64,000 nt of DNA. Source: Acholoe squamosa. Taxonomy: Eukaryota > Annelida > Polychaeta > Phyllodocida > Polynoidae. The stretch covers positions 36,891,932 to 36,955,931 of the forward strand of contig OX439052.1 in the NCBI GenBank assembly GCA_949317995.1. The letters run 5' to 3'. This document shows, in pieces, positions 14,390 to 64,000 of the stretch; the first letter of the stretch is position 1; each line of letters begins with the position of its first letter. Both the position numbers and the translations under genes were made by a program. The notes beneath the pieces were generated by a model. The model was not told where the DNA came from. It saw only the letters and a list, made by a program, of their open reading frames with translations, and ran no database searches.

Positions 14390-15260
14390 CATCAATATGA
14401 GGCATCACTTTTAATATAAGGCAACAATGAAGCAATCCAGACCATTCACATGAGGCTGCAATGCAGCATACTGGGCCATTATAATGAGGTATCAATGTAG
14501 CATGATGGGCCATTATAATGAGATATCAATGCAGCATACTGGGCCATTATAGTGAGGTATCAATGAAGCATGATGGGCCATTATAATGAGGTATCAATGC
14601 AGCATGATGGGCAATTATAATAAGGTATCAATGCAGCATGCTGGACCATTATAATGAGGTATCAATGCAGCATGATGGGCCATTATAATTAGTTATCTAT
14701 TGTCTTTATAACACATGTTAGGACATTAAAAGTCCAAAGCCTCTGATATCCCACAGGAAGGATAGACAAGGTGATACCTTGCTCAGGTGTGCACTGTACT
14801 CCTATAAGGCACTCAAGGTCAGTTCTATATTGTGCAGCAATGCATGGGCTGCTGTTTTATAATGTGCAACAGTGCATGGGCTGCTGTTTTATAATGAGGT
14901 ATCAATGCAGCATGATGGGCCATTATAATCCGTTATCAATGCATCATGATGGGCCATTATAATGAGGTATTAATGCAGCATGATGGGCCATTATAATGAG
15001 GTATCAATGCAGCATGATGGGCCATTGTAATGATCTATCAATGCAGCATGATGGGCAGTTATAATGATCTATCAATGCAGCATGATGGGCCATTATAATG
15101 ATCTATCAATGCAGCATGATGGGCCATTAAATGAGGCATGAAAGCAGCCTGCTGGACCATTAACATGGGGCATGAAAGCAGCTTACTGGAACATGAAGCA
15201 CCAAATGCAGCATGCTTTGTCATTATTATTAGGCAGCTATGCTGCATGCTGGGCCATTAT
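14390..15260. repeat. 34-bp minisatellite (interrupted)
   Basis: A tandem array with the unit GAGGTATCAATGCAGCATGA plus TGGGCCATTATAAT (34 bp). There are about nine units in 14450-14700 and about ten more from 14896 to 15250, with point differences. The central interruption (about 14700-14895) carries two 32-bp copies of a GCAGCAATGCATGGGCTGCT-type unit. Units near both ends are more diverged. Short open frames across it are just the repeat translated. Confidence 0.92.
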
Positions 15261-15915: not shown

Positions 15916-16292
15916 TGTAAGGGTTTGTGGCCTTACGGACCTGGGGGGTTCGGGTCTTACGATTCGGAAAGAAAGAGTAAGACAGTATTCCAAGTGTATG
16001 CCAACGGTTAGGTTTATTACTTAATGCACACTCACGGCTGCCGAATGATATCAAAGAGGCAGCTAATATTAAAAGGCAGTGGTTTACATAGTGTGGAGGC
16101 CAGAAGGGCCTCTGACGCAGCGGCTGAGCCCTGGGCTTTATATACGGACCCAGGTGTTCGTCGTCAGATGTCCCCACAGACCCGGATCGGTGCTGCCACC
16201 TATCCGGAACCTGAGGAACGTCCGACGACTCGACTCACCCGCCACGTCAGACGGTACCCAACTCCTATGGTTTAGTAAAGTGTACCTCTACA
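15916..16292 (-). repeat. 3' LTR of element B
   Basis: 377 bp with ends TGTA...TACA, matching 28387-28763. On the sense (minus) strand a TATA-type signal lies at 16137-16144 and an AATAAA polyadenylation signal at 16013-16018, about 120 nt apart in the expected order, which defines U3-R-U5. Short open frames in it are identical in both LTRs and are not genes. Confidence 0.95.
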
Positions 16293-17809: not shown

Positions 17810-20758
17810 TTAAACGGATTTCTTAGCATGCTTCTTCTTCAGAAGAGCTAAAGCCGACTCGGGAGTGCCGTCCCACTCGTCCAAGTCGACTCCGAACACC
17901 CTCATGAACTTAGTGTTCAGGTTGGTGTTCCGAGTGATCTCCTCCTTTACACGTTTTTCCAACACGTGTACATCCATAGCTGCTTTTTCTTGAGCAGCTG
18001 AGGCAGCCTCCTCCTGGGCCTTTACATCGTCCCGGATGAGAGTCTCGAGACGTTGCTTTTCAGCGTCGCCCACCTGTTTCATACACAACAGGGTTTCGTT
18101 TAGGAGACCCTGATGAAACTCGATCGCTTTCTCACGAACGGTCTTCTCCCAATGGGTGTAGATGGCCTTCTGGACATCTGCCTCCCCTTGGCGAGACTTC
18201 TCAAACCAAACTTCCGCATTACCAGTTTTAATGGTAATGGCGTCCTTCGGTTTCTCAGGTGCCGCGACAGCCTTGGGAGGAGTCGAGGCGGCCTGTGGAC
18301 CACTTCCGGGTTTAGGACTCCCGGACACACCTGTCGTTGGTACACAGAAGGCAGGTGGTACATTCTGTTTCAGTCCCATTTGCAGGTACATGTTTAACTG
18401 CTCCTGGGTAAAGGTAACTGGTGGGGCGGCTGGAGCGGATGCAGATCCGGCGGCAGCAGATGCGGTGGTCTTCTTTGGCATAAGGCGACCATCCTTTCCT
18501 ACCACCAAGGTCTGGCTCTCAGGTCCAGGTCCCTGGTTTAAGGACGGAAAGTTTCGAGAACTCACTTTCCCAGGTTTAGATACGGCTCCAGCGTATCCGG
18601 CAGGTTCAGGCTTCTTGAACACCGGAGTGCCCTGAGCCTGTTCTGCGGGGTGCCTTGTCAGAGGGGACCTGGAACGGTCCTCTGCTCTGACCTTTGGTTT
18701 TGTTGTGCTCTGACCATTACCGTTGCCGCCACGGTTCTGGTCTCTCCTGCTCCTTTCACGAGCTCTCTTTGCATCCTTTCCGGATTCCTCGCACTTCTGC
18801 CAGAGAGACTCGTGCATGTCCAATTTACCCTTTCCAGGAGTCAGGACTATCTTTGCTCGGAGTTTCGAATCCTTGGTCTTCGGAACTTCGCAGAGGACTT
18901 GGTCCCCTGGTCGGATCTTAGACCAAGCATCCTCGCTCAGGCTATCGAACTCCTTCATGAGTTCCTGATGAAGCTCCATGATGCGCTTCCGGGCCCCGTC
19001 CAAACCTTCTGCGTGGCATTTCTTCTGGTGTCTAGCCAGATCACTACGTCGGTTGTATTGCACCTTCGTAGTACACTTCTTGCCCTTCTTACCATAACTC
19101 GGATCACAAATGTAAACCGGGTGATGGTGGAAGTGGGCCTCTACCAGATGCCTTTGGAACCGGGCTGGAGTACTCCAGGTCCGGATCGAGACATCACTCG
19201 CATCCTGGCAGATAGAGAAGGGACAGGACTTTTGATCGTCACCGTACCACTTCTCTAAAGCCCAACGCAGCTTCCTCCTCTGGGTATAAGTGTAATACCC
19301 TTCGGTGTGGTTTAGCATAAGCCACATCTTTCGATAGGCTTTGCTCGGATTGGGGTCCTCGTCCGAAAGGCGCATCCAATCTTCATCATCCGACTCATCG
19401 TTCTTATTGATTGAGTCTGGACAGGCATAGAGGGTAGAGCCGTCCTTCTTAACTCCGTACGCACAGTCGGAGAAACACGTCGGGATCCGGGTTTTGAATC
19501 CGGATTTGGCGTTAGCCCAACGTTCGGCCTCGGTTTGAGTTGATGGAGTGGCCTTCTCATCATACTCAACCGAGGATTCGTGCACCGACTCCTCGTCAGA
19601 CGACTCAACCTCCATGGCAGTACTACCAGTGGTTGAGGTGCTGGGTTTCGGCTCGGCTCTCGCAGAATCCGGGAGATTCTTGAGCTTCCGAGCAGCGGAT
19701 CGTCGGTTCTTACTGACCTTCCAGTCTTCCTCCGGTTCCTGGGTTCCGGATGTGCTGGAGGTCGTGGCTTCTACTGGAGTAGTAGTGCTGCCGGTAGCTG
19801 ATGTAGCACTGGCGGAGCTTCTGGTGGCAAGCTTCAGGTCGGGGATAGGAGGTGCGGGTGCTTCCGCGGCCCTCTTAGCCTCTTCCTGTGCCTCCTGTTC
19901 GGCAGTCATGCGGCGGACAATAACCGTCCGAAGGGCTGCAGCTCGGTCCAATCCGATTAGTGAATTGTTCTGGACATCCACCAATTCCTGTTCGGTTATG
20001 TAGTAACCGTCGTCCCACTGCTCGAAGTTAGCAGCGGCCTCCCGGAATTCCTTAGTGGTCCGGCACGGCGTCCGGATAGCACTAGGGCGTGGGTAGGTCT
20101 GGCCATCGGTATCCCAGACACAGCCTACCCAGTTAATGTTCGTAGCCTTGACGTTCCACAGGGACTTGTCAGGCTTCGGATACGCTCCGAGCTCGAAGGC
20201 TCGGTTAGCTGCGTACACGGTTTCACGGAAACCGGCGTCCACCATAAGTCCCCGTTGGAACCACGGCCAGTCTCGAAGCCACTCGGGAGGCATCCTGGTT
20301 AGCTGTTCGGGAGCCATGACGCCCTCGATAGCTATCCTGACTTTCGGGTCCATCCTGACTGGTGTCCCGTCCGCGTAGGTCACTTGTGCCTGCAGTTCCG
20401 GGTGGACATACAGGTAGCGACCATCATAACTAGCTGGAAAAGGCTCCGCCACTGCTGGCTTCCACTCATCCTTCTGTCCGTCGACTTGGGTAGTTTCGGA
20501 CTCTGTCGCTGCGGGTTCAGCACTCGCAGTCGCTCCGGATCCCTCTGCTGGGAGTGGAGATAGCAGTTTCTCTGGCTCATTGAGTGAGAATGAAGCCAGC
20601 TTCTCCTCGAACGAGCGATCCGTGGGTTCCTCCACGTCCATCATCTCGCTCTCTTCCTGTGTAACAGGCGACAAAGCTTCCGGAAAAGCTTCTGCGGACG
20701 GAGTCAGCTTATCCGGGTCACCGGATAGCTTGGCTGCAGCTACGGATTCCTCAGCCAT
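17810..20758 (-). CDS. ORF3 of element B: novel post-pol protein with zinc fingers and coiled coil
   Basis: An intact 982-codon ORF on the sense strand, 510 bp after pol. I chose the ATG at 20758 (MAEESV) because element C's homologue also starts MAEE(A)V; an in-frame GTG lies six codons earlier. Regions: acidic Ser/Glu-rich N terminus (1-100); a globular domain starting YDGR (about 110-310); low-complexity Ser/Thr/Lys linker; a domain starting WANAKSGF (about 415) that leads into two C2H2-like zinc sites (CPFSIC...RHLVEAHFHH near 513-545, and YICDPSYGKK...RHQKKCH near 550-582); a basic, Pro/Ala-rich stretch; and a C-terminal coiled coil (about 860-955) ending in the conserved box FGVDLDEWDGTPESAL. 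There is no signal peptide or membrane segment, so it is not an envelope. It may be nuclear or nucleic-acid binding, which is inference. No named family was recognised. Confidence 0.88.
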   Translation of the reverse strand: MAEESVAAAKLSGDPDKLTPSAEAFPEALSPVTQEESEMMDVEEPTDRSFEEKLASFSLNEPEKLLSPLPAEGSGATASAEPAATESETTQVDGQKDEWKPAVAEPFPASYDGRYLYVHPELQAQVTYADGTPVRMDPKVRIAIEGVMAPEQLTRMPPEWLRDWPWFQRGLMVDAGFRETVYAANRAFELGAYPKPDKSLWNVKATNINWVGCVWDTDGQTYPRPSAIRTPCRTTKEFREAAANFEQWDDGYYITEQELVDVQNNSLIGLDRAAALRTVIVRRMTAEQEAQEEAKRAAEAPAPPIPDLKLATRSSASATSATGSTTTPVEATTSSTSGTQEPEEDWKVSKNRRSAARKLKNLPDSARAEPKPSTSTTGSTAMEVESSDEESVHESSVEYDEKATPSTQTEAERWANAKSGFKTRIPTCFSDCAYGVKKDGSTLYACPDSINKNDESDDEDWMRLSDEDPNPSKAYRKMWLMLNHTEGYYTYTQRRKLRWALEKWYGDDQKSCPFSICQDASDVSIRTWSTPARFQRHLVEAHFHHHPVYICDPSYGKKGKKCTTKVQYNRRSDLARHQKKCHAEGLDGARKRIMELHQELMKEFDSLSEDAWSKIRPGDQVLCEVPKTKDSKLRAKIVLTPGKGKLDMHESLWQKCEESGKDAKRARERSRRDQNRGGNGNGQSTTKPKVRAEDRSRSPLTRHPAEQAQGTPVFKKPEPAGYAGAVSKPGKVSSRNFPSLNQGPGPESQTLVVGKDGRLMPKKTTASAAAGSASAPAAPPVTFTQEQLNMYLQMGLKQNVPPAFCVPTTGVSGSPKPGSGPQAASTPPKAVAAPEKPKDAITIKTGNAEVWFEKSRQGEADVQKAIYTHWEKTVREKAIEFHQGLLNETLLCMKQVGDAEKQRLETLIRDDVKAQEEAASAAQEKAAMDVHVLEKRVKEEITRNTNLNTKFMRVFGVDLDEWDGTPESALALLKKKHAKKSV

Positions 20759-21267
20759 GACTGGGGAATCGACCACGGGAGTAAACTACTCCTTTTTCCG
20801 GCTTTTACGGCGCCGGGGCCGGCACAAACGGAGTCTGTCTACCAGGAGACAGACTCTGGAGGAGCAGCGGGGGGTTTGCTTAGCCGGTAAAATCCAAGAA
20901 GGGAGCGAGCTCGACCGTCTTGAACGTTACCGAAAACAAATATGGCGACAGGCCAGCTTTCGTGACGTCATTTCCCCGCGGTCCGCGAGGTCACGAGAGG
21001 TCAGCCGAGACTGGACACGGTGACGTCATGCGGAAACGCACGTGCTACAGGCGGTACATCAACAAACTGATTGTTTTTAGGTAATTATCGCTCACCCCGA
21101 TGACTCGACTGGGGATTTAAGTGGAGATTATGGAAAGCTTAAGCAAATCCACCGGATTATCCGTCCACTACCCATTGGTACATCATGCGGGGGCGACAAA
21201 TAAGCCTTTAGGGTCAGTTGTCATCCGTTCCTCTAAATGTAAACATTACACTCGTTGTGTATACAGG
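20759..21267 (-). promoter_or_regulatory. pol-ORF3 spacer of element B with conserved motifs
   Basis: A 509-bp non-coding spacer. It shares two short blocks with the same spacer in element C although the surroundings have diverged: one at 21147-21167 and one at 21248-21273 overlapping the pol stop. It also has CRE-like TGACGTCA near 21022. It may contain an internal promoter, a splice acceptor or a translation signal for ORF3; the sequence alone does not decide. Confidence 0.5.
21147..21167 (-). promoter_or_regulatory. Conserved palindromic motif in pol-ORF3 spacer (B)
   Basis: The plus-strand core CCACCGGATTATCCGTCCA is identical in element C (62074-62094). Its centre CGGAT-T-ATCCG is a perfect inverted repeat around one base. 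It lies in otherwise poorly conserved DNA, so it is likely under constraint. Confidence 0.6.
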
Positions 21268-24200
21268 TTAGGTCACTGCAGTCCTCTGGGCAATTCGGGG
21301 GCTGCGGCGAACGTATCTCCCCTTCTCGGATAGTTCTTTATCGGACCTGACAGTCTGAAGAGCTTTCTCTAGGTGCTTCTTAGCCTTAGAAACACCTTTC
21401 CTCTTCTTTTTGTCTTCACCTGCCGAGACTTTTTTAACTCCCCCACGCTTAATCGGTGTTGGCGTGGGTGTTACTGATTCGGAACACTTTTTGGGTCTAC
21501 CTTGACCACGCTTCACTGTAGTGTTCTTTACCTGGTCTATTATGCGATTCTGATTCAGGATCCTTTCGGAACCTTCACCATACATTTCTGTGGAGGTCTC
21601 CCTCCCAGACCATCTCCTTAATCTAGCCACATTTGACTTATAGAGTCGACCAAGGTCAGATTTAATAATTACGGTACAATCACTGATAATTTGTGTTATA
21701 GTAAAGGGACCGTCCCAATTAGACGCTAATTTTATGTGTCTAAGTGGTTCATGTAATCTAAGGACTCTGTCTCCGGATTGGAATTTCCGATGTTTTAGAT
21801 CGGTATCGTATCCTACTTTCTGCCATTTGGCACTTTTCTCCAAATCAATTCGGACAGACTCATATGCTTTTCTAAATCTGTCTCTTAAACATTCCACAAA
21901 AACTACATGGCAAGGTAGTTCAGGGTCCATTCCTACGACTCCAAAAACTAGGTCAGCAGGCATTATCAAATCCTCTCCGAATACTAAAAGGTTCGGAGAA
22001 CAATTTGTACTTGAATGTACTGTACTATTATAAGCATGTGTCACAAAATGACATTGCTCATCCCAGTCATCCATATGTTCATTAACGAGTGACTTTAGGA
22101 CTTGGATGAGGGTTCTATTGAACCTTTCCACTAATCCGTCGCTTTGTGGTCTATACGGATTGGTTCTAGTCTTGCAAATAGCCAAGTATTCGCACATACC
22201 CTGCCAGAGATTTGATTCGAACTCTCTGCCTTGGTCACTGTGTAACATTAATGGTACACCGAAGCTTAGTACCCAACCTTTTACAAAAGCTTCGGCGCAA
22301 GTAATTGCTTTGTGATCCGGTAGTGGAAATACTTTAGTGTATTTCGTATAATAATCACACACTACCATCATACAGGTATTATCATTAGCGGTTGTATTAA
22401 ATCCACTAATAATATCTACCCCGATTCTTGCGAATCTAACTCCGAAAAGTTCTTGGGATAGGGGAAGTTTGCCCATCCCGGGTCCGGGTTTGTTTTTACA
22501 ACAATCCGGACAGGTGGTTATCCATCTTTGCAAGTCCCGTGTCATGCCAGGCCAATAGTATTTCTTGGAAAGTCGTGCTAGCGAGCGTTTCCTTCCGAAA
22601 TGACCACTGGTCCGATGTCCATGACAAAAGTACATAATGTCATGTCTCATGGCATGTGGTATCACCACTTGCATGATTCTATCACCATTATTACATGGCT
22701 TCCAACGGTATAACACGCCTTTCCGGACTTCAAGCTCTGTCCATTGAGCAAGAAACCTTCTCATTTCTCGATTTTCCAGAGAGACCTCTGGTCTAACTGG
22801 ACGTATACCCTTTGGTACTAATTGCAGTAGCTGTGCAGTTATCGAGTCAGCTTCCTGGAAATGTCGTATGTGATCCATAGACCAATCCAGTATACTGGCA
22901 ACTAGGGGTACGAATGGTCTTCGAATCCCTGCTAACACTGCCTTATGAGCTCCACAATCAGTACAATCCGGATTATCACATTTCCGGATTGGTATTCGAG
23001 ACAAAGCATCAGCATTTAAATGCTTAACTCCGGGTCTATGCTGAATCTGTTGATGTTCAAGCCCATATTCGGATAAATGGGCTAGCCATCGGCCTAACAT
23101 GCCTTCAGCATCTCGGAAGTTCAGTAACCACCTTAAAGAGGAATGATCCGTACGCAAAGTAAAGTTCGTTCCCCATAGAAAATGTTTGAACTTCTTGGTA
23201 TATACGACTACTGCTAACAACTCTCTTTTGGTTGTGCAGTAATTGCGCTGGGTCTTGCTCAGTGTATTGCTGGCAAAGGCAATTGGCACTTCTCTCCCAT
23301 TTTGGACTTGCGAGAGAGCTGCACCAATGCTATCATTACTAGCATCAGTATCCAGTATGAAATGATCCGTCTCATTCGGATATTGCAATACGGGAGTACT
23401 CGTGAACAGGTCTTTTAGCTTTTGGAAAGCGGTTTCCTGTTCATGCGTCCAAGGAAATTTTTCCTTGGTACTTCCTGGAGTCCAGTTAGCTATTGCTTGT
23501 AATGGGTAACTGACTCTAGAATAATTCGGAATAAATTCCCTGTAATAGGAACAGAATCCTAAAAAGGACCTCACTTCTTTGGGTGTTTTAGGTCTATTCC
23601 AATTCGTAACTGATTCGATTTTTTCTGGATCAGCCTTTATTCCTTCATCACTGATGATGCGGCCAAAATAATTTATGGACTTTCTAAACATGTGGCATTT
23701 CTTAGGTTTCAATTTGAGACCATTTGAAATAATACGTTCTAGTACCATTTTTAGGTTATTAGAACATTCTTCGAATGTTTTTCCGAAGACAATGACATCG
23801 TCTAGATATACAAGACATCTTTTCCACAATAAATCACTTAGAATTGTTTCCATCATTGCTTCAAATGTTGCAGGTGCATTGCACAATCCAAACGGCATTA
23901 CATTATATTGGAATAATCCAATATGACTTGAAAATGCAGTTTTCTCCATATCTGAAGGGTTCATTCCCACTTGCCAATAGCCTGATTGCAAGTCTAGGGT
24001 ACAAAACCAACTGTTTCCTCCTAAGGAGTCAATGGTTTCATCTATTCTCGGTAATGGATACGAATTCTTTTTCGTTATTCCATTCAACTTCCTGTAGTCT
24101 ATGCAGAAACGGATAGTACCGTCTTTTTTTGTTACCATACACACAGGACTACTCCATGGGCTATTGGAAGGGACTATTACATCCTGTTCCAACATCTTAT

Positions 24201-25503
24201 TTATTTCATCCTCAGCTACTCTCTTTTTTGCTAAGGGTAACCGTCTATACGGTATCTTAAAGGGTTCGGCATCTCCAGTATCTATTTTATGTAATACCTT
24301 ATTTGTCGTACCTAGTTTTTCACCAGGTTTGGCAAAGGCAGTATGATACTGACAGAGCATATCATAGAACTCTTTCCGGTGTTCCGGATCTTCTAATGAA
24401 GTTTCTTCATACAACTTAAGTAAGTCTTCCGAAATTTCATCATCTCCTGTTACCTTCTGTAAGCTTAGCTTACTATCCGTTACAGTTTCCGAAAGGGTCA
24501 CGTTTCCAAAAACTTGTCCCTTTTTCAAGTAGATAGTAGTGTTTCCAGTATTGGAGACAGGTACTACCGACCAGGATGCATTCGCTACTATCGTGTCTAC
24601 AGAATTTAATCCAATACCTGACAAAGTAACTACATCCGGTTCTATCACTGCAGGTTTGTTACGCATTGCAGGATCACTTCTTACAAGCACATCACAGGCT
24701 ACTCCCGGAGGGATTCGCACAGTGTGTGCCACACTAGCCATACTGCTCACTTGTCTCAGTGCACATCTAACCTTCACGGGGTACGGGTATCTCACACTCA
24801 ACACTCCTGTTTGGGGTTCCAATACAGCACCATACAGGGATGCGAAATCCAACCCGAGTATCCCCTCATCTGCTATATCCGCAACGGTGGCGCTCATGAC
24901 ATAGTCATGTATACCATCTAACTGTAGTCTCACACAAGTTCTACCATACGTTTGCAAGGTACTGCCGTCGGCCGTCTGAGCACTTCCTCCCGATTTGAGA
25001 GTATCATGTTCATCCGGTATAAGGTCGTAGAACCCCTTGGAGATACAAGAGTGGCTAGCTCCCGTATCCACAAGGAATTCGGCAGACCTTCCGTTAACAG
25101 TAAGGCAAACATACCACCGCTTTCCGTTTAGAACAGAGGGCATGTCCGTGACAATCGGAACGTCATTTTTCACACCAGGAGTCAATCCACATCCTTTTAA
25201 GAATTCCAGACAAGGATGACCCGGGGGCAGGTGGGCACCACAGACCTTGGCTAACGAATAGCCGCCTGCCTCGTTACTGATATTGGGTTTCCCCTGTGCT
25301 CCCATAGCACCTGTTATATCAGCTTCCCTAACCTTCCGGGTGTCTACAACCACCTCGGTGTTAGGCGATCTTGTTACTTCATGTGAACTATCATCACGGA
25401 TGGTGATATCATGGCAAGATTTGTCACTGGGATCCCCTTCTTTGCCCCTCGGGAGACCCCTCCTTAGTTTTCCTCTGTACTTACTCCAGAGACACTCTCC
25501 TGT
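21268..25503 (-). CDS. pol: Pol of element B: protease, RT, RNase H, integrase
   Basis: An intact pol polyprotein. The open frame reaches 25503, overlapping the gag end by about 40 nt in the -1 frame; the first in-frame GTG is at 25353 and there is no early ATG, so gag-pol fusion by -1 frameshifting is likely. Counting from 25353: retropepsin FLVDTGASHSCIS (about 95) with DEGILGLDFASLYG; RT with PLPRIDETIDSLGG, LDLQSGYWQVG, PFGLCNAPATF and the catalytic YLDDVIVFG (about 516); RNase H LDTDASNDSIGAALSQ (about 670) and TDHSSLRWLL; integrase HHCC site (HGHRTSGHFG...CPDCC, about 915), catalytic D, D and E in GVDIISGF, HSDQGREFES (about 1036) and DGLVERFNRT; GPY/F module NWDGPFTITQI (about 1216); and a basic Lys/Arg-rich tail ending TAVT. 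All catalytic residues are present. Confidence 0.97.
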   Translation of the reverse strand, partial: TGECLWSKYRGKLRRGLPRGKEGDPSDKSCHDITIRDDSSHEVTRSPNTEVVVDTRKVREADITGAMGAQGKPNISNEAGGYSLAKVCGAHLPPGHPCLEFLKGCGLTPGVKNDVPIVTDMPSVLNGKRWYVCLTVNGRSAEFLVDTGASHSCISKGFYDLIPDEHDTLKSGGSAQTADGSTLQTYGRTCVRLQLDGIHDYVMSATVADIADEGILGLDFASLYGAVLEPQTGVLSVRYPYPVKVRCALRQVSSMASVAHTVRIPPGVACDVLVRSDPAMRNKPAVIEPDVVTLSGIGLNSVDTIVANASWSVVPVSNTGNTTIYLKKGQVFGNVTLSETVTDSKLSLQKVTGDDEISEDLLKLYEETSLEDPEHRKEFYDMLCQYHTAFAKPGEKLGTTNKVLHKIDTGDAEPFKIPYRRLPLAKKRVAEDEINKMLEQDVIVPSNSPWSSPVCMVTKKDGTIRFCIDYRKLNGITKKNSYPLPRIDETIDSLGGNSWFCTLDLQSGYWQVGMNPSDMEKTAFSSHIGLFQYNVMPFGLCNAPATFEAMMETILSDLLWKRCLVYLDDVIVFGKTFEECSNNLKMVLERIISNGLKLKPKKCHMFRKSINYFGRIISDEGIKADPEKIESVTNWNRPKTPKEVRSFLGFCSYYREFIPNYSRVSYPLQAIANWTPGSTKEKFPWTHEQETAFQKLKDLFTSTPVLQYPNETDHFILDTDASNDSIGAALSQVQNGREVPIAFASNTLSKTQRNYCTTKRELLAVVVYTKKFKHFLWGTNFTLRTDHSSLRWLLNFRDAEGMLGRWLAHLSEYGLEHQQIQHRPGVKHLNADALSRIPIRKCDNPDCTDCGAHKAVLAGIRRPFVPLVASILDWSMDHIRHFQEADSITAQLLQLVPKGIRPVRPEVSLENREMRRFLAQWTELEVRKGVLYRWKPCNNGDRIMQVVIPHAMRHDIMYFCHGHRTSGHFGRKRSLARLSKKYYWPGMTRDLQRWITTCPDCCKNKPGPGMGKLPLSQELFGVRFARIGVDIISGFNTTANDNTCMMVVCDYYTKYTKVFPLPDHKAITCAEAFVKGWVLSFGVPLMLHSDQGREFESNLWQGMCEYLAICKTRTNPYRPQSDGLVERFNRTLIQVLKSLVNEHMDDWDEQCHFVTHAYNSTVHSSTNCSPNLLVFGEDLIMPADLVFGVVGMDPELPCHVVFVECLRDRFRKAYESVRIDLEKSAKWQKVGYDTDLKHRKFQSGDRVLRLHEPLRHIKLASNWDGPFTITQIISDCTVIIKSDLGRLYKSNVARLRRWSGRETSTEMYGEGSERILNQNRIIDQVKNTTVKRGQGRPKKCSESVTPTPTPIKRGGVKKVSAGEDKKKRKGVSKAKKHLEKALQTVRSDKELSEKGRYVRRSPRIAQRTAVT
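25464..25475 (-). promoter_or_regulatory. Candidate -1 ribosomal frameshift site between gag and pol (B)
   Basis: The sense end of gag reads GAG GAA AAC TAA. Slipping back one base at the A-rich GAAAAC places the ribosome in the pol frame, which reads through as LRRGLPRGKEG with no stop down to pol. The Y-YYZ half (AAAAC) fits a slippery heptamer, but the P-site half (GGA) is not a perfect XXX. Confidence 0.5.
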
Positions 25504-28247
25504 CTACGAGGGACAGGTTTTTCAGCCATACATTCTGGAGCATAATGCCCCAGTTTCTGGCATCTGAAACATCTCCTCTGGGATTTGTCAACTCTCGGTC
25601 TCTTTAGAGCTTCTGTTAATCCGGCTAATAATGTTTCCATCATGTTAGTCGGAGCAACAGTGGCTGCTACAGTTGGGTTCGCCGTAGAGGCTACACTGCC
25701 AGGTTGAGTTGATCCGGAAGCTGTTTTACCAGCAACTGATCCTCCTCTCCCTCTCGAATGTACTTTCCTATACCGCTTTTGTCGGTAATATTTTCCAGCT
25801 ACATGCACTGAACCAATATAATCTCCGTTTTCATCGGAGACATATTCATCATTCTCATCAACTTCATTCGATTCAACCGGAGCTAATTGGGAAGTATCAT
25901 ATACCGGAGCAGGTGTACCTCCGTATTGGAATGGAGCTGCTCTTATTGGATTAGGTCCGAGACCTACCAGACGTTTCTTCATGTCATGTCCATCGATTGC
26001 TATAAACAGATCACTGAAGGAAGTGTCATCTTTCCAAGAGTCCCAGACCACTTGCTTGTGATCCGGATCACGCAATCCACTGTAGAATTGTATAAACAAT
26101 TCTTGTAGATAACAATCATCATCATGAGCCCAATTTGGACGTGCTTTCGAAAGCAAGTCCTGTAGCTCCAAACCAAAGACTTTGTGTGATTCTTTAGGTT
26201 TTTGTGTCCTCTTCTTAAAGCTTACCCACGGATCTTCTCTAACGATTGATCCGAAAAGGTATGCGGCACATTCGACCAATTGATCATAGGTACCATATAT
26301 TCCGTAAGCTGCTCTCCATTGGTTGAGAGCTACTTTTCCGCCTTTATTTAACCAACAAATCAAATATGGCAGAGCTTCTTCTTTTGTCCAGCCACTACAA
26401 TTGACTTCGTCAACAAAAGCTTGATACCTGTCCTTCCATGGATCATTAGAATCATATGGAGGGGGTATCCGTGCCTGCCTACGTGCCGGATTATTGCATC
26501 CGCGTAGTCTATCTGCTTCTCGCATGCTCCAGTTCATGACTTCCATGCCGTCTGCTCCCTTTCGGTAGCAGTCAATGCCAAGGTTTTGTATACATTGGCT
26601 TCTATCAAAGATGGTTTGCATCCCTGCAGGCATAGAAGTTCTCCTGTTAGGTTTCCTGCCATCTCCTCCTGATCCTGATCCTCCGAATCCGGATCCTCCT
26701 GGGCCGCCTGGAGGGTTTCCTCCTGGTGGACCATTATTATTATAGCCTCCAGATGAACCACCAGGGTATCCACTATTGTGACCGGTGTTTCCAGAAGAAG
26801 CATATCTAGGGTAAGAATCATTTTGATTCCCTCCCTGGTTATAGCTATTACCATTCTGATAATTGCCACTTCCCGATGGATTATAATTATTTCTATATCC
26901 ATAGGAAGATGTTCTCGGTTGGTACGTACCGCCGTTGATATTGTTTTGTGGCGGATTTGGTCTCGGAAAACGTCCATCAGTAGGACCATTACCAGAACCT
27001 GGGGGTGGATTCGGTAATCTTGGTACTGCTGGTGTACTGTGGCCGGGTTGGGGGAAATATGAAGGTGGTGTCAACATATGTCTCATTGGTCCGGGTGCTC
27101 TTGGTTGTGCCACGGGTGAATTATTATTATTCCCTGTAGCACCATCGTGAGTCGCTTTGATTTTGTGACTCAAATCTGGTATGGGTGGTGCTGGTCCTAT
27201 CGTATCCAGCATTGGAACTACTGGTTTAGATGCGGTTCCATTTACTGCAGCATTATCCGGTTTCTTATAGATTCCGGATACCACATTCTTGTCAGCCCCA
27301 TCATCAACGAATGGGCTGTATCTAATTGGGGTTGCATCTTTAGATGTCTTTCCCAACATTGTAGATACCACAGCTGGGTCTATATTACCTATAGTTAACT
27401 GGGCTGCTTCTACATATTTATCTAGAGTTATTGCAGTGGCCTGCAATTCCTGAAGCTCATTCGTGAGTTTCTGTCTATCCTCCTCCAGTTGTTTGTTGTA
27501 AGCTATGATGCCTACCCGGATGGTCTCATTATCTTCAGCTTGTTTACTGCACTGAAGTTTCAATTTATCCAACTCCTCCTGATAATGGCGAATTTCGGAT
27601 TCGAATTTTGTCTTATCAAGGTTTAGTTGGTCGTTCGTATCTATGTATGTTTGGATACGAATGTGCCTATTGTCATATTCTTTATTGAATGAATCTCTCA
27701 TAGATTGAAGTTTTAGTTCTTCACTCTCGAGTTCTTTCATGTACTCGCTCCTTCTGGCTTCGAATTCCTTTCGCATGCCAGTTAGGTCCTCTTCCATTTG
27801 AAGTTTTTCATGCAATACTTCATCCTTAGCTTTGACCAAGGTATTTAAATTCTCGTTCAAAGTTACATAAGTTTCATTCAACAACAGGACATCCGGTCGT
27901 TTTAATTCTTCACCTTCCGGTACCGCATAGGTTAAGTCGCCATCTATAGCGCTATAATCTAATATTGGTAATTCGGGCCTGGGTAACCTATAAGGTAGTT
28001 CTCCGAATGTTACCCTTTTTCGCATTGGTGCCGGATGTTCTGGGTTAGTACTACCACCGACTTCGAACATCGAATCACATAATTCGTCAACAATTGAATG
28101 CTGGCCTATTAAGTTACTATGTCTCTGTATGGACTGTTCGCGTCGTACAGAGTCTGGCAGATTCTCCTCACTATCATTATAGTGGGGTCCGGGATCTCTC
28201 CAGGATGCTGATTCTGCATCTTGTGAGTCCGAATGGGCTTGGAGCAT
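25464..28247 (-). CDS. gag: Gag of element B
   Basis: An intact structural polyprotein. The frame is open from just after the primer site, but the first ATG is at 28247 (MLQAHSD), giving 927 residues; an in-frame GTG at 28361 would add 38. Order: a short N-terminal domain; a long coiled coil (about 130-300) rich in Glu/Lys/Leu; a Pro/Gly/Asn/Tyr-rich low-complexity stretch (about 370-530); a retrotransposon capsid-like region (about 570-740: PPYDSNDPWKDRYQAFVDEV, FKKRTQKPKESHKVFGLEL); and a single CCHC zinc knuckle CFRCQKLGHYAPEC about 20 residues from the end. Capsid and knuckle are expected to assemble particles and bind element RNA. The coiled coil before capsid is shared in layout with the A/E family gag. 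Confidence 0.93.
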   Translation of the reverse strand: MLQAHSDSQDAESASWRDPGPHYNDSEENLPDSVRREQSIQRHSNLIGQHSIVDELCDSMFEVGGSTNPEHPAPMRKRVTFGELPYRLPRPELPILDYSAIDGDLTYAVPEGEELKRPDVLLLNETYVTLNENLNTLVKAKDEVLHEKLQMEEDLTGMRKEFEARRSEYMKELESEELKLQSMRDSFNKEYDNRHIRIQTYIDTNDQLNLDKTKFESEIRHYQEELDKLKLQCSKQAEDNETIRVGIIAYNKQLEEDRQKLTNELQELQATAITLDKYVEAAQLTIGNIDPAVVSTMLGKTSKDATPIRYSPFVDDGADKNVVSGIYKKPDNAAVNGTASKPVVPMLDTIGPAPPIPDLSHKIKATHDGATGNNNNSPVAQPRAPGPMRHMLTPPSYFPQPGHSTPAVPRLPNPPPGSGNGPTDGRFPRPNPPQNNINGGTYQPRTSSYGYRNNYNPSGSGNYQNGNSYNQGGNQNDSYPRYASSGNTGHNSGYPGGSSGGYNNNGPPGGNPPGGPGGSGFGGSGSGGDGRKPNRRTSMPAGMQTIFDRSQCIQNLGIDCYRKGADGMEVMNWSMREADRLRGCNNPARRQARIPPPYDSNDPWKDRYQAFVDEVNCSGWTKEEALPYLICWLNKGGKVALNQWRAAYGIYGTYDQLVECAAYLFGSIVREDPWVSFKKRTQKPKESHKVFGLELQDLLSKARPNWAHDDDCYLQELFIQFYSGLRDPDHKQVVWDSWKDDTSFSDLFIAIDGHDMKKRLVGLGPNPIRAAPFQYGGTPAPVYDTSQLAPVESNEVDENDEYVSDENGDYIGSVHVAGKYYRQKRYRKVHSRGRGGSVAGKTASGSTQPGSVASTANPTVAATVAPTNMMETLLAGLTEALKRPRVDKSQRRCFRCQKLGHYAPECMAEKPVPRRQESVSGVSTEEN

Positions 28248-28370
28248 TAGCGATCCATTTCCATTCTCTTGGGCAAGTGATTGCCCTGCTGGGTTAGCTT
28301 CCCTAAGGGTGTCTAACCCATGTACTAGCCGTTCGGACGTTATAACGTCCGGGCTATACACCAGAATTAA

Positions 28371-28386: not shown

Positions 28387-28763
28387 TGTAAGGGTTTGTG
28401 GCCTTACGGACCTGGGGGGTTCGGGTCTTACGATTCGGAAAGAAAGAGTAAGACAGTATTCCAAGTGTATGCCAACGGTTAGGTTTATTACTTAATGCAC
28501 ACTCACGGCTGCCGAATGATATCAAAGAGGCAGCTAATATTAAAAGGCAGTGGTTTACATAGTGTGGAGGCCAGAAGGGCCTCTGACGCAGCGGCTGAGC
28601 CCTGGGCTTTATATACGGACCCAGGTGTTCGTCGTCAGATGTCCCCACAGACCCGGATCGGTGCTGCCACCTATCCGGAACCTGAGGAACGTCCGACGAC
28701 TCGACTCACCCGCCACGTCAGACGGTACCCAACTCCTATGGTTTAGTAAAGTGTACCTCTACA
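28387..28763 (-). repeat. 5' LTR of element B
   Basis: 377 bp, matching 15916-16292 with no difference noticed. Sense-strand TATA signal at 28608-28615 and AATAAA at 28484-28489. Identical LTRs point to a recent insertion. Confidence 0.95.
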
Positions 28764-28765
28764 CC

Positions 28766-39726: not shown

Positions 39727-39734
39727 CTGCCTAC

Positions 39735-41146: not shown

Positions 41147-41149
41147 GGT

Positions 41150-41560: not shown

Positions 41561-41588
41561 AGATGAGCTTGCAGTATCGGATGGCATC

Positions 41589-50101: not shown

Positions 50102-50102
50102 C

Positions 50103-57986: not shown

Positions 57987-60900
57987 TCACTGTTCCATGT
58001 TCTCCTCGGGTGGCTGGTTGGGACCCGGTTGTTGAGCCTGTGGCTGAACGGGGGGGTCCACACCGGTTCCATCCGTAGATGCCAATGCTGGGACAGCAGG
58101 TGTTAGTTTCACCTTTTGGCGTGCTTCGAACAGGTTCAAAGCATGCTCAGGTGTGCCGTCCCAGTTATCCATGATAACTCCAAAAACCTTGAAGAACTTT
58201 TGCTGGTTCTTCATGTTCGTTGCTCGTTCTAGGTCGAGCATCTGAGAAGCTGTTTCCTTCTCGGATAGGGCCTCCTGCCGCAGATTAGCAGCTTCCTGCT
58301 TATCTTTGGCAACATCCGCCTTTATCTGAGTCGAGATCCGGTTGATCTCTGACTTCTGGATCCCGTCAATGCACTGGAGAGTGCTCGACACGGTCCGACG
58401 ATACATATCCAGGTGGAGGTTTTCCAGATGGTGCTGTAACGTCTCAAATTGCTTGCTCTGAATATTGCAAGACAATTTGTCCTCCTTCTTGAAGAAGGTC
58501 TCCACTGTCTGGATCAGCTTAGGCCGATGAACCACAGCACCAGGTGGGGGTACCTGACCCTGAGGCTTCGGCTGTGCTCCAGACCCACTCGCAGTGACAG
58601 CTACACGCGTATGCGAAGAAGCAACCGCAGTAGTAGCTGCACTAGCAGTGGTCAAAGAAGGGCCTTGAGTTGGTAATCCCTGAGCTAGGGGCAACCGCGA
58701 CAATTCGCTTCTAAGGTCTTTGGCTGTCAACAATGGCGCGGGTGGACGTTGTCTCACCACAGCACTCATTGTTGGTCGGGGAGCTTGACCTCCTACTGTC
58801 GGCAGTTCCTGCTTGACCCTCCCGTACTGATCAAAGATTTGCATCTCTGGTCCCGGGTGGGCCCATAGCAGGGTACTGCTTCGGGTCTTTGACATTCAAA
58901 GGCGCGTGTTTCCGGGAGGACTGGCCACCCGGTCCACTGACACCAAAGAATGTCGGGTTCTGTGCACCTAGTGGGGTTGGTGCTCGTCCATGATGGGAAG
59001 GAGTTCCAGTAGGAGATGGAAGATGTGGCTTCTTCCTTCCCCCATTCGTCTGTCTCTCCAACGCCTCCAGTGGTGACCTGGCTCGGCTTGGAGATTCAGA
59101 CGCCTGTCTCTTCCTATCTGCCGCGGAGGGTCCCTGGCGGTAATCCCTACGACTTCGGACCTGTTCTCCGGATGGAGTTACATAAGCCCCACCACAGCGG
59201 CGGGCCTTGTTGCTCCTCCATTCGTTCAACAGATCGTACTCTTCCTGAGCGTACTCTAGTTTGCCGGACCTGGGAGTCTGGGCAAACCGAGCCTTTAGTT
59301 TCTGGTTAGTACCAGGAACCGTAGGCGCAAACTGCTTCATACTCGGTGTGAGGGAAGCCAAATTCTCTGCATTGAGGCCCTTAAGGTTACCATAGAGTTC
59401 AGAGTGAATTTTCATCACCCGATCTATGGCTGCCTCCAGGCCCTCTCCATGCGAAGTCACATAGTGCCGGACCATGTCTCCGCGTCGGGGAGTGACACAT
59501 CCTGTGCATTTAGCACATTTCTTGCCAACCTCCCGGTCGCAGACATATTCCGTCCTCTGGTGCATATGAACCTCCACGAGATGACGAAGGAACTCGTCTT
59601 TCTCGATGAAGAATTCAACCTCACCCTCACTTTGGGTACAACGTTGAAAGGGACAATCCTTACGATCCTCCCCGTAGTACTCATCTAGAGCAAACTTGAG
59701 CTTGCCCTTCTGGTCGTAATTGTACAGACCATTGGGCGAATTCTTAACGAATTCCCAATAGATCCAGTACATATTGGCCGGCTTTCTATTGGAGAGCTTC
59801 TTGCGAAGCCACTCCTCCATATCTTCACGCTTCTCACAGGTGATCTGAGGGGGCAGTCTCCATACGGATTTACTCCCCTTCAGGTGTCCCCTGTGTAGAG
59901 GAATGAAGTCGACAAAGTTGCTATGGGCGTTAGCCCAGATAGCAGCCTCTTGCTCGTCAGTCGGAGTGGCATCCACAACTGGGTCAACTGGCTCCTCTCC
60001 CTCCGGGTCGGATGGTACATCCACAGGTTGCACAATGGGTTGTTGACCCACGAGAACCTGGGCTGCGGCATCTTGAGCGTCTCCACTCAAATCGGCCATT
60101 ACGTCGTGTAGCTTGACGATTGGCACACCGAGCTCAACTTTTACGGTTGGGACAGCCGGTTCAGCTTCTGTATTATCAGCTTGAACGTCTACCTCGATAG
60201 GTTCAGGTTTGCGTTGGTCAACCTTCTTCTTATTCCGCCTGCGGGATCTGCCGTTAGTAGAAGTGCCAGGCTCGGATGCGTCCGTCTCGTTGCCGGAGAC
60301 ATCCGAAGCCTTAGCGCCCTTCTTATTGGCCGAGCGTGGAGACACCCGACGGGTTCGGGTACTGTCGGCCACACTCGTGCTGGTAGAGGGTTCGGTTCCT
60401 GACCGCTTCCCTTTACCCTTACCTTTGGTGGGGGTTGCTTTACCCTTTCCACCAGCTGCTTTCCCTTTTACTTGCTCAGTCTTCGTAGGGGTAGACTGAG
60501 CAGTTTTAGGGGAACCATCTGCATCAGGTAGGGCCTTCTCAGGTACTACTGCTGCGTCTCCCAAGGTAGGAGTTTCAGCAGGAGACATGAGACGGTCCAT
60601 CCGATCGGCCATCTTGGCTGTTACGTGCACGGGTGCGGGTCCGGGTACTAGCTCCGGATGCGCCAGTGCATACTGCCTCTCCAATAGACGTACTACGAGG
60701 TCCTGTATTACCCCGAGTCTGTCTAGTGGAGACACACCAATACGGGCCTCTTCCGCCTCAATGGTTTGAGACGTAATGGGGACCCCTGGACAGTAATCCA
60801 CAACAGCGTTACCTGCTGCTTCATACTCATCCGCTGTGCCTAACATTAGGATCTGGTCTCTATCTATGTATCTAGAGACCTCATCTGCCTTGACACCGAT

Positions 60901-61666
60901 GTAACCCGTTTTGTCAGACACATAGGAAGGCCTATAAGAGGTATTCCTTCGGAAAGCCATTTCTGCGTCCCAGACGGCTTTACGAAACCATAAGTGGACT
61001 ACCAATCCTTTGGCCATCTGATGGTAATCCATCAACCAGGACTCCGGAAAGGTATTAGCCCATTGCGGATGAGCACATTCCCAGATTGCGTTGACGACAT
61101 GCTCGTCAACCTCTCTGGACGTCCCATAACAGGTGGGTATCAGCATTTCCTCAGAAATTGCTAACATCCGTCCGTCATAGGGACCGGCTACATCGTGCCA
61201 TTCTGGACTGTCTTGGAGGGGCAGCTCTAGGTACATTGGCCTGTCAACCGGAGAAGCAGGTCCCAAAGCACCGAATGAGGTACTCCCACCAAGACGGGGC
61301 GGCAATTGAGGGGGAGGTGGCATCAGAGCCCTGTCGTGAGACTGGACTCCTGCCGGCTCTCCACTCAAACCTTCGGATGGAGGGGCTACATAAGGCTCAC
61401 CTACATCAGTTTGTTGTTGAACACCTCGGCGTTCAGGACTAACTTGTCTGGAGTTGTCGGATGCGTCATAGAACGATTCTACGTCGCTATCGTCTACTCC
61501 AGAGAAGTACTGATCAACATTCATTTGTTGATCCATCTGATCACAATCAGCATCGTATTGCTGATCGTCGTATGTATAAGTGGGACTCTGGGGAGAACCA
61601 CTTCCATACTCCGGCGGGGTGCTGGCACCGGCACCACCACCAAGGCGGACGGCCTCTTCTGCCATC
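57987..61666 (-). CDS. ORF3 of element C (one frameshift): zinc-finger/coiled-coil post-pol protein
   Basis: Homologue of B's ORF3, about 1,226 codons in total. Start chosen at the ATG at 61666 (MAEEAVRLGG), matching B; an in-frame TTG lies 35 bp upstream. Blocks shared with B in the same order: YDGR domain (about 164), WFRKAVWDAEMAF, LVVRLLERQYALAHPE, WANAHSNF (about 575), C2H2-like sites CPFQRC...RHLVEVH (about 670) and CDREVGKKCAKC...RHYVTSH (about 737), basic linker, coiled coil, and the terminal box FGVIMDNWDGTPEHAL. The first frame stops at 58831 and the rest is in the +1 frame (from about 58895). Alignment to B places a single-base indel near 58860 in a GGGCCCACCCGGG run, so this is more likely a mutation than two genes. 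It has a longer acidic N terminus and linker than B and no membrane segment. Confidence 0.85.
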
Positions 61667-62219
61667 GACAGAAGTGGCTGTTCGGGGATAAAATATCCCA
61701 ATCCACCGGATAAGCAGTAAGTACTGCTTACCCAGTGAAAGGCGGGTGCCTTTTAACGAGGGCACACCTCGGAATATGGCTGTCACGGGCTATCAGACTC
61801 CAACAAGAGTAAGACCACCCTCGGCCACGTCTTCTTCCTTCACAGGAATAAGACAATATGGCGGGATACTCGAACTTGAATCGCTGCGCATGATCAAACC
61901 GGCGCCTCACGTGACCATTCGAAAATGGGTCAACAACTTTCCCGCGTGCCCTTAATTAGGTCACGCGCCCTTACATAAAAACAATACAATACCCGATAGG
62001 TCGTCCGTCCGTACTCAGGGTTCAACCATGACAACTCGCTAGGTATTATGGAGTTTATGGATAGCATAAGCATATCCACCGGATTATCCGTCCAAAACCA
62101 TGGGTACATTGTCATAGGACCTTTTCCAGAAACTCATGACCAGCTCAAATATACATTGAACTAGGTTACAACATATAACAGTACACAGTACAGGACAACA
62201 CACTCGTTGTGTTAACAGG
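61667..62219 (-). promoter_or_regulatory. pol-ORF3 spacer of element C with conserved motifs
   Basis: 553 bp non-coding. It shares with B's spacer the palindromic block at 62074-62094 and the ACACTCGTTGTGT block at 62200-62226 that overlaps the pol stop. The remainder is not obviously alignable. Confidence 0.5.
62074..62094 (-). promoter_or_regulatory. Conserved palindromic motif in pol-ORF3 spacer (C)
   Basis: The plus-strand core CCACCGGATTATCCGTCCA is identical to B (21147-21167), with similar flanks (TATGGA..AGC.TAAGCA before, CCAT.GGTAC after). Confidence 0.6.
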
Positions 62220-62226
62220 CTAGGTT
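62200..62226 (-). promoter_or_regulatory. Conserved motif across the pol stop codon (C)
   Basis: ACACTCGTTGTGT, two bases, then ACAGG-TAGGT; matches B at 21248-21273. The stop codon of pol (TAG here, TAA in B) lies inside it. Confidence 0.55.
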
Positions 62227-64000
62227 ACGGCAGTCTTTAGCAACCTTGGACTGCGTCTAAGAGGTTTTGAGGCCTCTTTTATTGACCTGGTATCCATAAG
62301 AGCCTTTTCCAAGGTCTTCTTAGCCTTAGAAGGACCTTTCCTCTTATTTTTACCTGCGCCTGCCGAGACTTTTTGTATCTTCCCCTGTTTTCCGGATGTT
62401 ACGACAGGGGGCACCACCCTCTTCGGGTCTGCAACCTTCCGTGGCCGCCCGGGTCCTCGCTTTCGGGTCGGTACCATTTCGAGTTGCTTAACATGACTCT
62501 GTTCCATTACTTCCAATAGACCATCACCATACATTTCGGTGGAGGTATCCCTCCCTCTCCATGGGCGTAGTCTCGCTACATTTGACTTGTAACATTTACC
62601 AAGCTGTGATTTAATAATCACTGTGCAATTACTAATAACCTGAGTTATAGTGAAAGGTCCATCCCAATTGCTGGCTAATTTCAGGTTGGCTAGAGGTTGG
62701 TGTAGACGCAGTACTCTATCCCCTAGATTAAAAAATCTAGCTTTTAGACCTGTGTCATAGCCAACTTTCTGCCAACGCGCAGTTTTCTGCAACTCGTCTC
62801 TAACCCTCTCATAGGCTTGTTTGAAATTATCCCGTAGGGATTCTACAAACATCACCTGGCAAGGGGTTTCCGGATTCATTCTTATTACGCCAAACACCAA
62901 ATCTGCTGGCATAATCAAATCCTCTCCAAAAACGAGGAGATTAGGGGAACAGTTTGTGCTCAAATGTACAGTGCCATTATAGGCATGTACCACGAATTCA
63001 CATTGTTCATCCCAATCATCCATCTGCTCATTTACTAGAGACTTCAATACTTGGATCAAAGTCCTATTGAATCTCTCTACCTGTCCATCGCTCTGTGGCC
63101 TATAGGGATTAGTTCTTGTCTTGCAGATCGCCAGACAATTACACATCTCTTGCCACAGACTAGACTCAAATTCTCTGCCTTGGTCACTATGTAACATGAG
63201 TGGGACACCTAGGTGCAGCACCCACCCTTTTACAAAGGCCATAGCACAAGTAACAGCCTTATGATCCGGTAGAGGAAACACTCGGGTGTACTTGGTATAA
63301 TAATCAGACACGACCATCATACACGTGTTGCCACTAGGAGTGGGGGGAATCCCACTAATAATGTCAACAGCTATTCTAGCAAACCTTACACCAAACAGTT
63401 CCTGGGATAATGGCAGTTTGCCTAACCCGGGTCCTGGTTTGTTCTTACAGCACTCGGGACAGGTCTCCACCCATCGGGTGAGATCTGTACTCATGCCGGG
63501 CCAATAGTATCGTCTGGTTAGACGTTCTAGAGACCGTTTCTTTCCAAAGTGTCCACTAGTTCTATGTCCATGACAGAAATACATAATATCTCGTCGCATA
63601 GCACTAGGTATGACAACTTGCAAGGTTTTCTTCCTATTAGAATGGTTCTTCCATCGAAACAGAATACCATCCTGGACTTCTAGCTCGGCCCATTGAGCTA
63701 AGAATCGTCTCATCTCTCTGTTTTCCAATGACACCTCGGGTCTTGGAGGACAGATACCCTGATTAAGGAACTTAATCAAACGTGATGTGACTGCATCAGA
63801 CTCCTGGAACTGCTGGATGGTCTCCAAGGACCAATTCAAGACATGTTCCGGATGGGTTTCGAATGGAACTCGAACCCCTGCCAACACAGCATTGTGTGCT
63901 CCACAATCAGTGCACTCAGCATTTGCACATTTCCTCACTGGGATTCTAGACAAAGCATCTGCATTCAAATGCTTTGCCCCGGCTCGGTGTTCAATCTGGC
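62220..64000 (-). CDS. pol: Pol of element C: RNase H end and integrase (partial at window edge)
   Basis: Open without interruption from the right edge to a TAG at 62220. It starts in the RNase H end (IEHRAGAKHLNADALSRIP) and covers the whole integrase: HHCC (HGHRTSGHFG, CPECC), catalytic D, D and E in VDIISGIPP, HSDQGREFES and DGQVERFNRT, GPY/F module NWDGPFTITQV, and a basic tail ending TAVT, the same last residues as in B. About three quarters of residues agree with B's integrase by eye. The N-terminal part is beyond the window. Confidence 0.95.
   Translation of the reverse strand, partial: QIEHRAGAKHLNADALSRIPVRKCANAECTDCGAHNAVLAGVRVPFETHPEHVLNWSLETIQQFQESDAVTSRLIKFLNQGICPPRPEVSLENREMRRFLAQWAELEVQDGILFRWKNHSNRKKTLQVVIPSAMRRDIMYFCHGHRTSGHFGKKRSLERLTRRYYWPGMSTDLTRWVETCPECCKNKPGPGLGKLPLSQELFGVRFARIAVDIISGIPPTPSGNTCMMVVSDYYTKYTRVFPLPDHKAVTCAMAFVKGWVLHLGVPLMLHSDQGREFESSLWQEMCNCLAICKTRTNPYRPQSDGQVERFNRTLIQVLKSLVNEQMDDWDEQCEFVVHAYNGTVHLSTNCSPNLLVFGEDLIMPADLVFGVIRMNPETPCQVMFVESLRDNFKQAYERVRDELQKTARWQKVGYDTGLKARFFNLGDRVLRLHQPLANLKLASNWDGPFTITQVISNCTVIIKSQLGKCYKSNVARLRPWRGRDTSTEMYGDGLLEVMEQSHVKQLEMVPTRKRGPGRPRKVADPKRVVPPVVTSGKQGKIQKVSAGAGKNKRKGPSKAKKTLEKALMDTRSIKEASKPLRRSPRLLKTAVT

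What the first reader, a model, noticed from the sequence alone, without database searches (positions are those of the whole stretch)
17810..20758. ORF3: a large, unrecognised post-pol protein in an intact Ty3/gypsy element
Seen: a 982-codon intact sense-strand ORF between pol and the 3' LTR. Its homologue in the diverged element C has the same block order (MAEE start, YDGR domain, WANA domain, two C2H2-like zinc sites, coiled coil, FGV...WDGTPE box). Known: extra post-pol ORFs in Ty3/gypsy are usually envelope-like, with a signal peptide and membrane span. This one has neither. Inference: a retained non-envelope accessory protein, possibly nucleic-acid binding, and a candidate new ORF class.
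Basis: partly seen in the sequence, partly recalled or inferred. Interest (0 to 1): 0.88.

Follow-up and report, generated by a model that had tools for sequence, protein, structure and literature searches.

The report
Ancient zinc-finger third gene in retrotransposons

Summary
On the minus strand, 20758-17810, lies an intact 982-codon ORF between pol and the 3' LTR of a young Ty3/gypsy element (12.8 kb, identical LTRs). The same gene follows pol in element C (window copy frame-broken; at least 6 of 30 fetched copies, the window copy among the 30, have an uninterrupted frame of 1221-1227 codons), in element A (coil module in a separate open frame of 1009-1015 aa in 22 of 141 scored places; zinc module read in one copy) and in L073, a contig of a bacterial MAG (1051 aa; pol about 50% identical). 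All four have two C2H2-type zinc sites whose ligands persist although spacings vary. No membrane span or signal peptide was seen. Pfam, PHROGs, PDB, IMG/VR and a 5.8-billion-protein search gave no significant relatives, but those searches are weak for this protein. In C copies, shared substitutions in an ORF3 part that was not used to pick the copies are 8 N:16 S against 16.4 N expected, as constrained as pol. I judge it an old, non-envelope accessory gene, most likely an oligomeric nuclear nucleic-acid-binding protein. That function is inferred; the only accepted structure prediction failed.

The parts
17810..20758 (-). ORF3 of element B, 982 codons from ATG to stop
20417..20428 (-). YDGR motif, in a domain of about 200 aa seen so far in B and C only
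19376..19393 (-). SDDEDW acidic-tryptophan motif; SDDEEW in A, SDDEAW in L073, EDMEEW in C
19133..19225 (-). Zinc site 1, C512 C517 H537 H542 (C-x4-C-x19-H-x4-H)
   Evidence: candidate ligands also in C, A and L073
19013..19108 (-). Zinc site 2, C551 C562 H577 H582 (C-x10-C-x14-H-x4-H)
   Evidence: candidate ligands also in C, A and L073
18659..18754 (-). Basic tail after the zinc module (RSRRDQ ... RSRSPL)
17858..18211 (-). Proline-free stretch (17912-18211), presumed coiled coil (no predictor run), followed by the VFGVDLDEWDGTPE box (17858-17899)
21122..21183 (-). 62-nt block in the pol-ORF3 spacer, 87% identical in element C although the ORF3 proteins are only about 30% identical; role unknown
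21249..21260 (-). ACACAACGAGTG just after the pol stop, identical in C
21268..25353 (-). pol of element B (PR-RT-RH-IN; AT-hook-like and RRSPR tail)
25464..28361 (-). gag frame of element B (GTG-open) with a CCHC knuckle just below the Pfam cut-off
15916..16292 (-). 3' LTR of B, 377 bp TG...CA
28387..28763 (-). 5' LTR of B, identical to the 3' LTR
58831..61701 (-). ORF3 of element C, first frame
57987..58895 (-). ORF3 of element C, second frame (C-terminal part and WDGTPE box)
62049..62109 (-). C counterpart of the conserved spacer block
62220..63998 (-). pol of element C, C-terminal half (cut by the window end), 70.6% identical to B pol

Best explanation
ORF3 is an old third gene of one Ty3/gypsy lineage, inherited with pol and kept by selection in the copies that spread. 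Shown: position after pol, intactness, presence in four families, two recurrent C2H2-type sites, absence of hydrophobic spans, purifying selection. Inferred: it is a soluble nuclear protein. The paired zinc sites and basic tail bind DNA or RNA, the C-terminal coil makes oligomers, and the acidic disordered N terminus recruits partners. I think it most likely acts on the element's own nucleic acid or on host chromatin in the nuclear phase (nuclear cDNA/integration complex, or keeping the element transcribed against silencing) rather than in cell entry.
For: Gene found in A, B, C and L073. Candidate zinc ligands in 4 of 4 families with shifted spacings; the A stretch has exactly eight Cys/His there, C and L073 have spare ones. 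Weak profile matches to tramtrack and CTCF fingers (E 0.35 and 0.56; not significant). No hydrophobic span. Purifying selection: in the ORF3 part outside the query, 28 of 30 C copies used, shared changes 8N:16S versus 16.4N expected (z -3.8), changes in 4 or more copies 0N:10S (6.9N expected), singletons near neutral, 37N:19S versus 39.3N expected. The pol tail in 30 C sequences behaves alike: shared 8N:17S versus 16.3N, single 57N:23S versus 57.0N. B-C: third bases of conserved four-fold residues are randomised (30 of 121 same, 31.5 expected) while 286 of 953 aligned residues are identical.
Against: Nucleic-acid binding is inferred from sequence only. Finger spacings are not classical and no Pfam zinc-finger model matches the zinc module; the best PDB profile match of that module is GGA1, not a finger (E 0.13). 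No fold is known. Expression of ORF3 is not shown and I found no convincing splice-site pair. The YDGR domain is seen only in B and C. In L073 the zinc module is only weakly like B (E 0.26; like C 2e-5, like A 5e-14), and its FG..W box has no significant match alone. The presumed coil alone shows no significant constraint within C (shared 5N:5S versus 6.5N expected), nor does the linker. The spacer block shares no 7-mer with the LTR, only a hexamer that occurs twice.
Confidence: 0.5

Rival explanations
1. ORF3 is a suppressor of host silencing (small-RNA or chromatin pathway), a more specific version of the nuclear reading.
For: Fast protein divergence (about 30% identity B-C, against 70.6% for pol), as in host-interaction proteins; nuclear-type features; capped searches show many near-identical copies of these families.
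Against: gag diverges about as fast (B against A 29.5% and 23.5% in two stretches; B against L073 23.5%; C gag lies outside the window), so speed alone is no sign of an arms race. No domain of a known suppressor was found.
Confidence: 0.2
2. ORF3 is a structural or packaging protein of the particle, a second nucleocapsid-like protein next to Gag.
For: Zinc sites plus basic tail plus presumed coil could bind genomic RNA; it diverges at a gag-like rate.
Against: Gag already has a CCHC knuckle; ORF3 is not significantly similar to Gag (best E 0.03 in a low-complexity stretch); it is encoded after pol in its own frame.
Confidence: 0.15
3. ORF3 is an envelope-like or cell-to-cell transfer protein.
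For: Position after pol is where envelope genes sit; small non-envelope transfer proteins exist in insect elements (PMC11952523, abstract only).
Against: No hydrophobic span (maximum 0.67 and 0.96), none in the first 48 residues, 3 and 2 N-glycosylation sequons in B and C; no envelope family in Pfam scans.
Confidence: 0.03
4. ORF3 is a recently captured host zinc-finger gene or a passenger without function.
For: C2H2-like fingers are common in eukaryote proteins (recalled).
Against: Shared by four families including one on a contig from another source; purifying selection. A very old capture from a host remains possible as its origin; I did not search for host genes apart from element copies.
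Confidence: 0.05

Closest known systems
Non-envelope ORF3s of bdelloid rotifer LTR retrotransposons (PMC5408684; abstract and section 3.3 read)
   Same: Third ORF after gag and pol, not an envelope, family-specific
   Different: Those encode GDSL esterase/lipase or DEDDy exonuclease and are missing from the earliest branches; this one matches neither and is shared by families with pol down to about 50% identity
Ty3/gypsy elements with envelope genes (Errantivirus; from part 1 of 5 of PMC12440569)
   Same: gag-pol-third gene order
   Different: No fusion-protein features seen here
Chromoviruses (integrase chromodomain; from part 1 of 5 of PMC12440569)
   Same: Added module that may touch chromatin
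   Different: Here a separate gene; no chromodomain match in pol, whose tail has AT-hook-like motifs instead
Troyka (PMC12440569, abstract and part 1 of 5)
   Same: LTR elements near Gypsy
   Different: Troyka has CG...CG ends and 3-bp duplications; B has TG...CA ends and 4-bp duplications
sORF2 of Drosophila MDG1-group elements (PMC11952523, abstract)
   Same: Accessory non-envelope ORF in LTR elements
   Different: sORF2 is a short transmembrane fusogen-like protein; ORF3 is large and without hydrophobic spans

Membership tests
Ty3/gypsy (Metaviridae) element | pol order protease-RT-RNase H-integrase | tested here: met
   Pfam matches in that order
Ty3/gypsy (Metaviridae) element | TG...CA LTRs with 4-6 bp target duplication | tested here: met
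   377-bp LTR; direct 4-bp duplication in 6 of 10 pairs of other copies, the other 4 pairs and the window copy keep an extra GG and share 2 bp
Envelope-bearing errantivirus-type element | Signal peptide and transmembrane span in the third ORF | tested here: not met
   hydropathy only
Rotifer-type enzymatic ORF3 (GDSL or DEDDy) | Match to those enzyme families | tested here: not met
   not among Pfam matches at E<=1 for whole ORF3 or at E<=10 for its domains
Classical C2H2 zinc-finger protein | Match to a C2H2 profile | tested here: not met
   weak PDB profile matches only
Classical C2H2 zinc-finger protein | Paired Cys2-His2 ligands conserved across relatives | tested here: met
   candidate ligands of both sites in 4 of 4 families, one sequence each
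Nucleic-acid-binding accessory protein | Binds DNA or RNA | not testable with these tools
   needs purified protein
Troyka | CG...CG ends, 3-bp duplication | tested here: not met

The most novel reading that the evidence does not exclude
ORF3 founds a new, ancient class of retrotransposon gene: a zinc-finger oligomer that governs the element's nuclear phase (chromatin targeting or escape from silencing), carried by a whole Ty3 lineage and a reason for its large young copy number.
Probability: 0.3. Interest if true: 0.85.

Novelty: new variant of a known kind. Interest (0 to 1): 0.6.

Why it matters
Third genes in LTR retrotransposons are usually read as envelopes or as family-specific captures. 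A large non-envelope gene kept across several families, about as constrained as pol within one of them, implies a step of the Ty3 life cycle that gag and pol do not cover. The zinc module is small and looks soluble, so binding and location can be tested directly, and the domain signature given here lets others look for the gene in genome assemblies.

Tried and rejected
Fusion of ORF3 to pol in element A: by my reading the window copy A1 runs from integrase into ORF3-like sequence in one frame, but A1 is deleted. Other A copies show two open frames, pol with 1570 aa as the commonest value (150 scored) and ORF3 with about 1010 aa, and 3.4 kb between the integrase match and the coil match in the copy at C1:49961136/49965005; neither frame is long enough to hold both. 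Rejected.

A 15-bp target duplication around B (suggested): rejected. Six of 10 other LTR pairs have direct 4-bp duplications; the other four and the window copy share 2 bp plus a GG (the script missed the GG cases, I read them from its printed ends).

B-family identity as proof of selection: all 46 scored copies are 100% identical in protein (capped list), 20 fetched copies differ from the window by 4-12 nt and 0 aa, and their 32 variable sites are all synonymous. That list was ranked by ORF3 protein score, so I do not rest the claim on it. The B pol tail in 16 of those 20 copies (4 misaligned, dropped) has 12 S and 6 N changes. The first C test (codons 1-945: N/S ratio to expectation 0.58 for singletons, 0.44 for shared changes) has the same bias; I rely on the C-terminal part, outside the query (2 of 30 copies dropped for poor alignment). 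The codon model on codons 1-945 gave omega 0.57. B-C dN/dS cannot be given as a number because synonymous sites are saturated.

RNA structure in the spacer block: fold z-scores -0.13 and -1.58, not convincing. Spacer block against LTR: no shared 7-mer; hexamer ATCCGG/CCGGAT twice in the LTR. IMG/VR scans with ORF3, pol, a pol profile and the zinc module: no relatives. L073's ORF3 searched in four MAGs matched only itself (1 of 4).

The no-hit results are weak: a pol control found 6148 relatives at E<=1e-20 among 7975 scored in the same database, several of the listed ones on contigs above 10 kb, so the word filter, not absence, may explain the miss.

Full report
What is there. Element B lies on the minus strand of the window: 5' LTR at 28387-28763, gag frame 25464-28361, pol 21268-25353, ORF3 17810-20758 and 3' LTR 15916-16292. 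Pfam finds protease, RT, RNase H and integrase in pol, a CCHC knuckle in gag just below its cut-off, and nothing in ORF3 at E<=1. The LTRs are identical. All 46 scored copies of B ORF3 there are 100% identical in protein (13,481 first-look candidates, only the best 46 scored). Direct 4-bp target duplications were seen in 6 of 10 LTR pairs. The bases after the 5' LTR, TGGTGCCGTGAC, would fit the 3' end of tRNA-His (recalled; the check did not complete).

The same gene in three families of one genome. Element C (pol 70.6% identical to B) has ORF3 split in the window copy. Of 48 scored places of C, the window copy among them, 31 have no stop inside the matched stretch (my count). At least 6 of 30 fetched copies have an uninterrupted frame of 1221-1227 codons from MAEEAVR to ENMEQ (7 copies were tested for this). 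Element A (pol about 59% identical in its longer stretches) continues to the left of the window. Its window copy is deleted in ORF3, but the fetched stretch L051 carries the coil-like part and FGV box (box alone E 0.001 to C and 0.008 to B). A search with that stretch scored 141 places, 22 of which (my count) have an open frame of 1009-1015 aa. An 820-base piece of one such copy, chosen by expected position, holds the zinc module in the same frame as the coil match (tblastn E 6e-7 to C and 2e-5 to B); the 545 bases between the two were not read.

The same gene elsewhere. A pol-profile scan of prokaryote genome contigs returned 17 loci. One, L073, in a Calditrichota MAG, has gag, pol (50% best segment) and, after a 666-base spacer, a 1051-aa ORF with the zinc module and a C-terminal FG..WDG box. 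Its zinc module matches A at 5e-14, C at 2e-5 and B only at 0.26; the box has no significant match alone. The contig is probably eukaryotic contamination (inference); its two ends repeat 91 bases. Profiles of the zinc module and of the C-terminal part, built from the four families, match only B, C and L073 among the window and the 17 loci; those three are members of the profiles, so this shows only that none of the other 16 loci has the modules.

Anatomy. An acidic, low-complexity N terminus (net -17 in the first 100 residues of B); a YDGR domain shared by B and C (26% identity); a variable linker; the zinc module; a basic tail with RSRR and RSPL; a proline-free stretch (0 prolines in 100 residues of B and in 105 of C) and the FG..W box. 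Zinc site spacings: B C-x4-C-x19-H-x4-H and C-x10-C-x14-H-x4-H; C C-x4-C-x18-H-x4-H and C-x10-C-x13-H-x4-H (with spare Cys); A C-x4-C-x18-H-x4-H and C-x8-C-x22-H-x7-H with no spare Cys or His; L073 C-x2-C-x22-H-x4-H and C-x12-C-x20-H-x3-H (with spare His). Ligands kept while spacings shift argue for real zinc sites. Weak profile matches to tramtrack and CTCF fingers (E 0.35 and 0.56) point the same way but rank below GGA1 (E 0.13) and are not significant.

Selection. In C copies, changes found in one copy only should be mostly post-insertion and near neutral; shared ones reflect spreading lineages. With expectations corrected for mutation type and CpG: pol tail, 30 sequences, single 57N:23S (expected 57.0N), shared 8N:17S (expected 16.3N). 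ORF3 C-terminal part, outside the query that chose the copies: single 37N:19S (expected 39.3N), shared 8N:16S (expected 16.4N, z -3.8), shared by four or more 0N:10S (expected 6.9N) (28 of 30 copies used). The coil-like part alone is not significant (shared 5N:5S, expected 6.5N). By domain in the ascertained part, shared changes are fewest relative to expectation in the YDGR domain (0.27) and the zinc domain (0.39), and near expectation in the linker (0.78, z -0.7). Between B and C, four-fold third bases of conserved residues are randomised in ORF3 (30 of 121, expected 31.5; pol 48 of 133, expected 35.1), yet 286 of 953 aligned ORF3 residues are identical. ORF3 diverges faster than pol but about as fast as gag.

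Spacer. Between pol and ORF3, B and C share a 62-base block at 87% identity and a 12-base motif right after the pol stop. With ORF3 synonymous sites saturated, such DNA identity stands out. The block does not fold significantly and shares no 7-mer with the LTR. It may serve ORF3 expression; this is unexplained.

Mechanism. Committed reading: a soluble, oligomeric, nuclear nucleic-acid-binding accessory protein (0.5). Shown: gene, conservation, candidate ligands, selection, lack of hydrophobic spans. Inferred: zinc and nucleic-acid binding, oligomers, nuclear site, step of the cycle. An anti-silencing role is the main specific rival (0.2), a particle protein next (0.15).

Novelty. Non-envelope third ORFs are known in rotifers (PMC5408684, abstract and section 3.3 read), so the kind is known; this protein family I could not link to any described one. 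Eight paper searches (that was about the MAG) listed no such gene by title or abstract start; apart from the papers named here the texts were not read. The mollusc LTR survey PMC6238403 uses neither 'ORF' nor 'envelope' in its main text (passage search). Repbase was out of reach, so 'not in print' is not claimed.

Noticed in passing
28764-28765: Window B and 4 of 10 other LTR pairs keep an extra GG (probably from the polypurine tract) before the 5' LTR and then share only 2 bp of target sequence instead of 4. The LTR search favours such copies, so the frequency is not known.
   Followed up: partly
21122-21183 and 62049-62109: 62-base block in the pol-ORF3 spacer, 87% identical between elements whose ORF3s are about 30% identical; function unknown.
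   Followed up: partly
pol C-terminus, 21268-21500: The pol lineage has a tail with AT-hook-like and RRSxR motifs: RRSxR in 40 of 53 best-scoring pol relatives (P0002-P0054) and 7 of the next 67; hook-like motif in 34 of 53 and 10 of 67.
   Followed up: partly
49512-57587: LTR element with two identical 592-bp terminal repeats, CTAG on both sides (read by eye), and no ORF above 113 aa inside; looks like a recent large non-autonomous insertion.
   Followed up: partly
39596-43236: 129-base arms, 93% complementary, enclose plus-strand frames similar to RNase H and integrase of Ty3 pol (24-32% identity).
   Followed up: no
14348-15197: Two arrays of a 34-base tandem repeat, about 0.7 kb beyond the 3' LTR of element B.
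   Followed up: no
L073:1-13374: A retroelement contig with terminally repeated ends sits in a bacterial MAG of the genome collection, a likely eukaryotic contaminant.
   Followed up: partly
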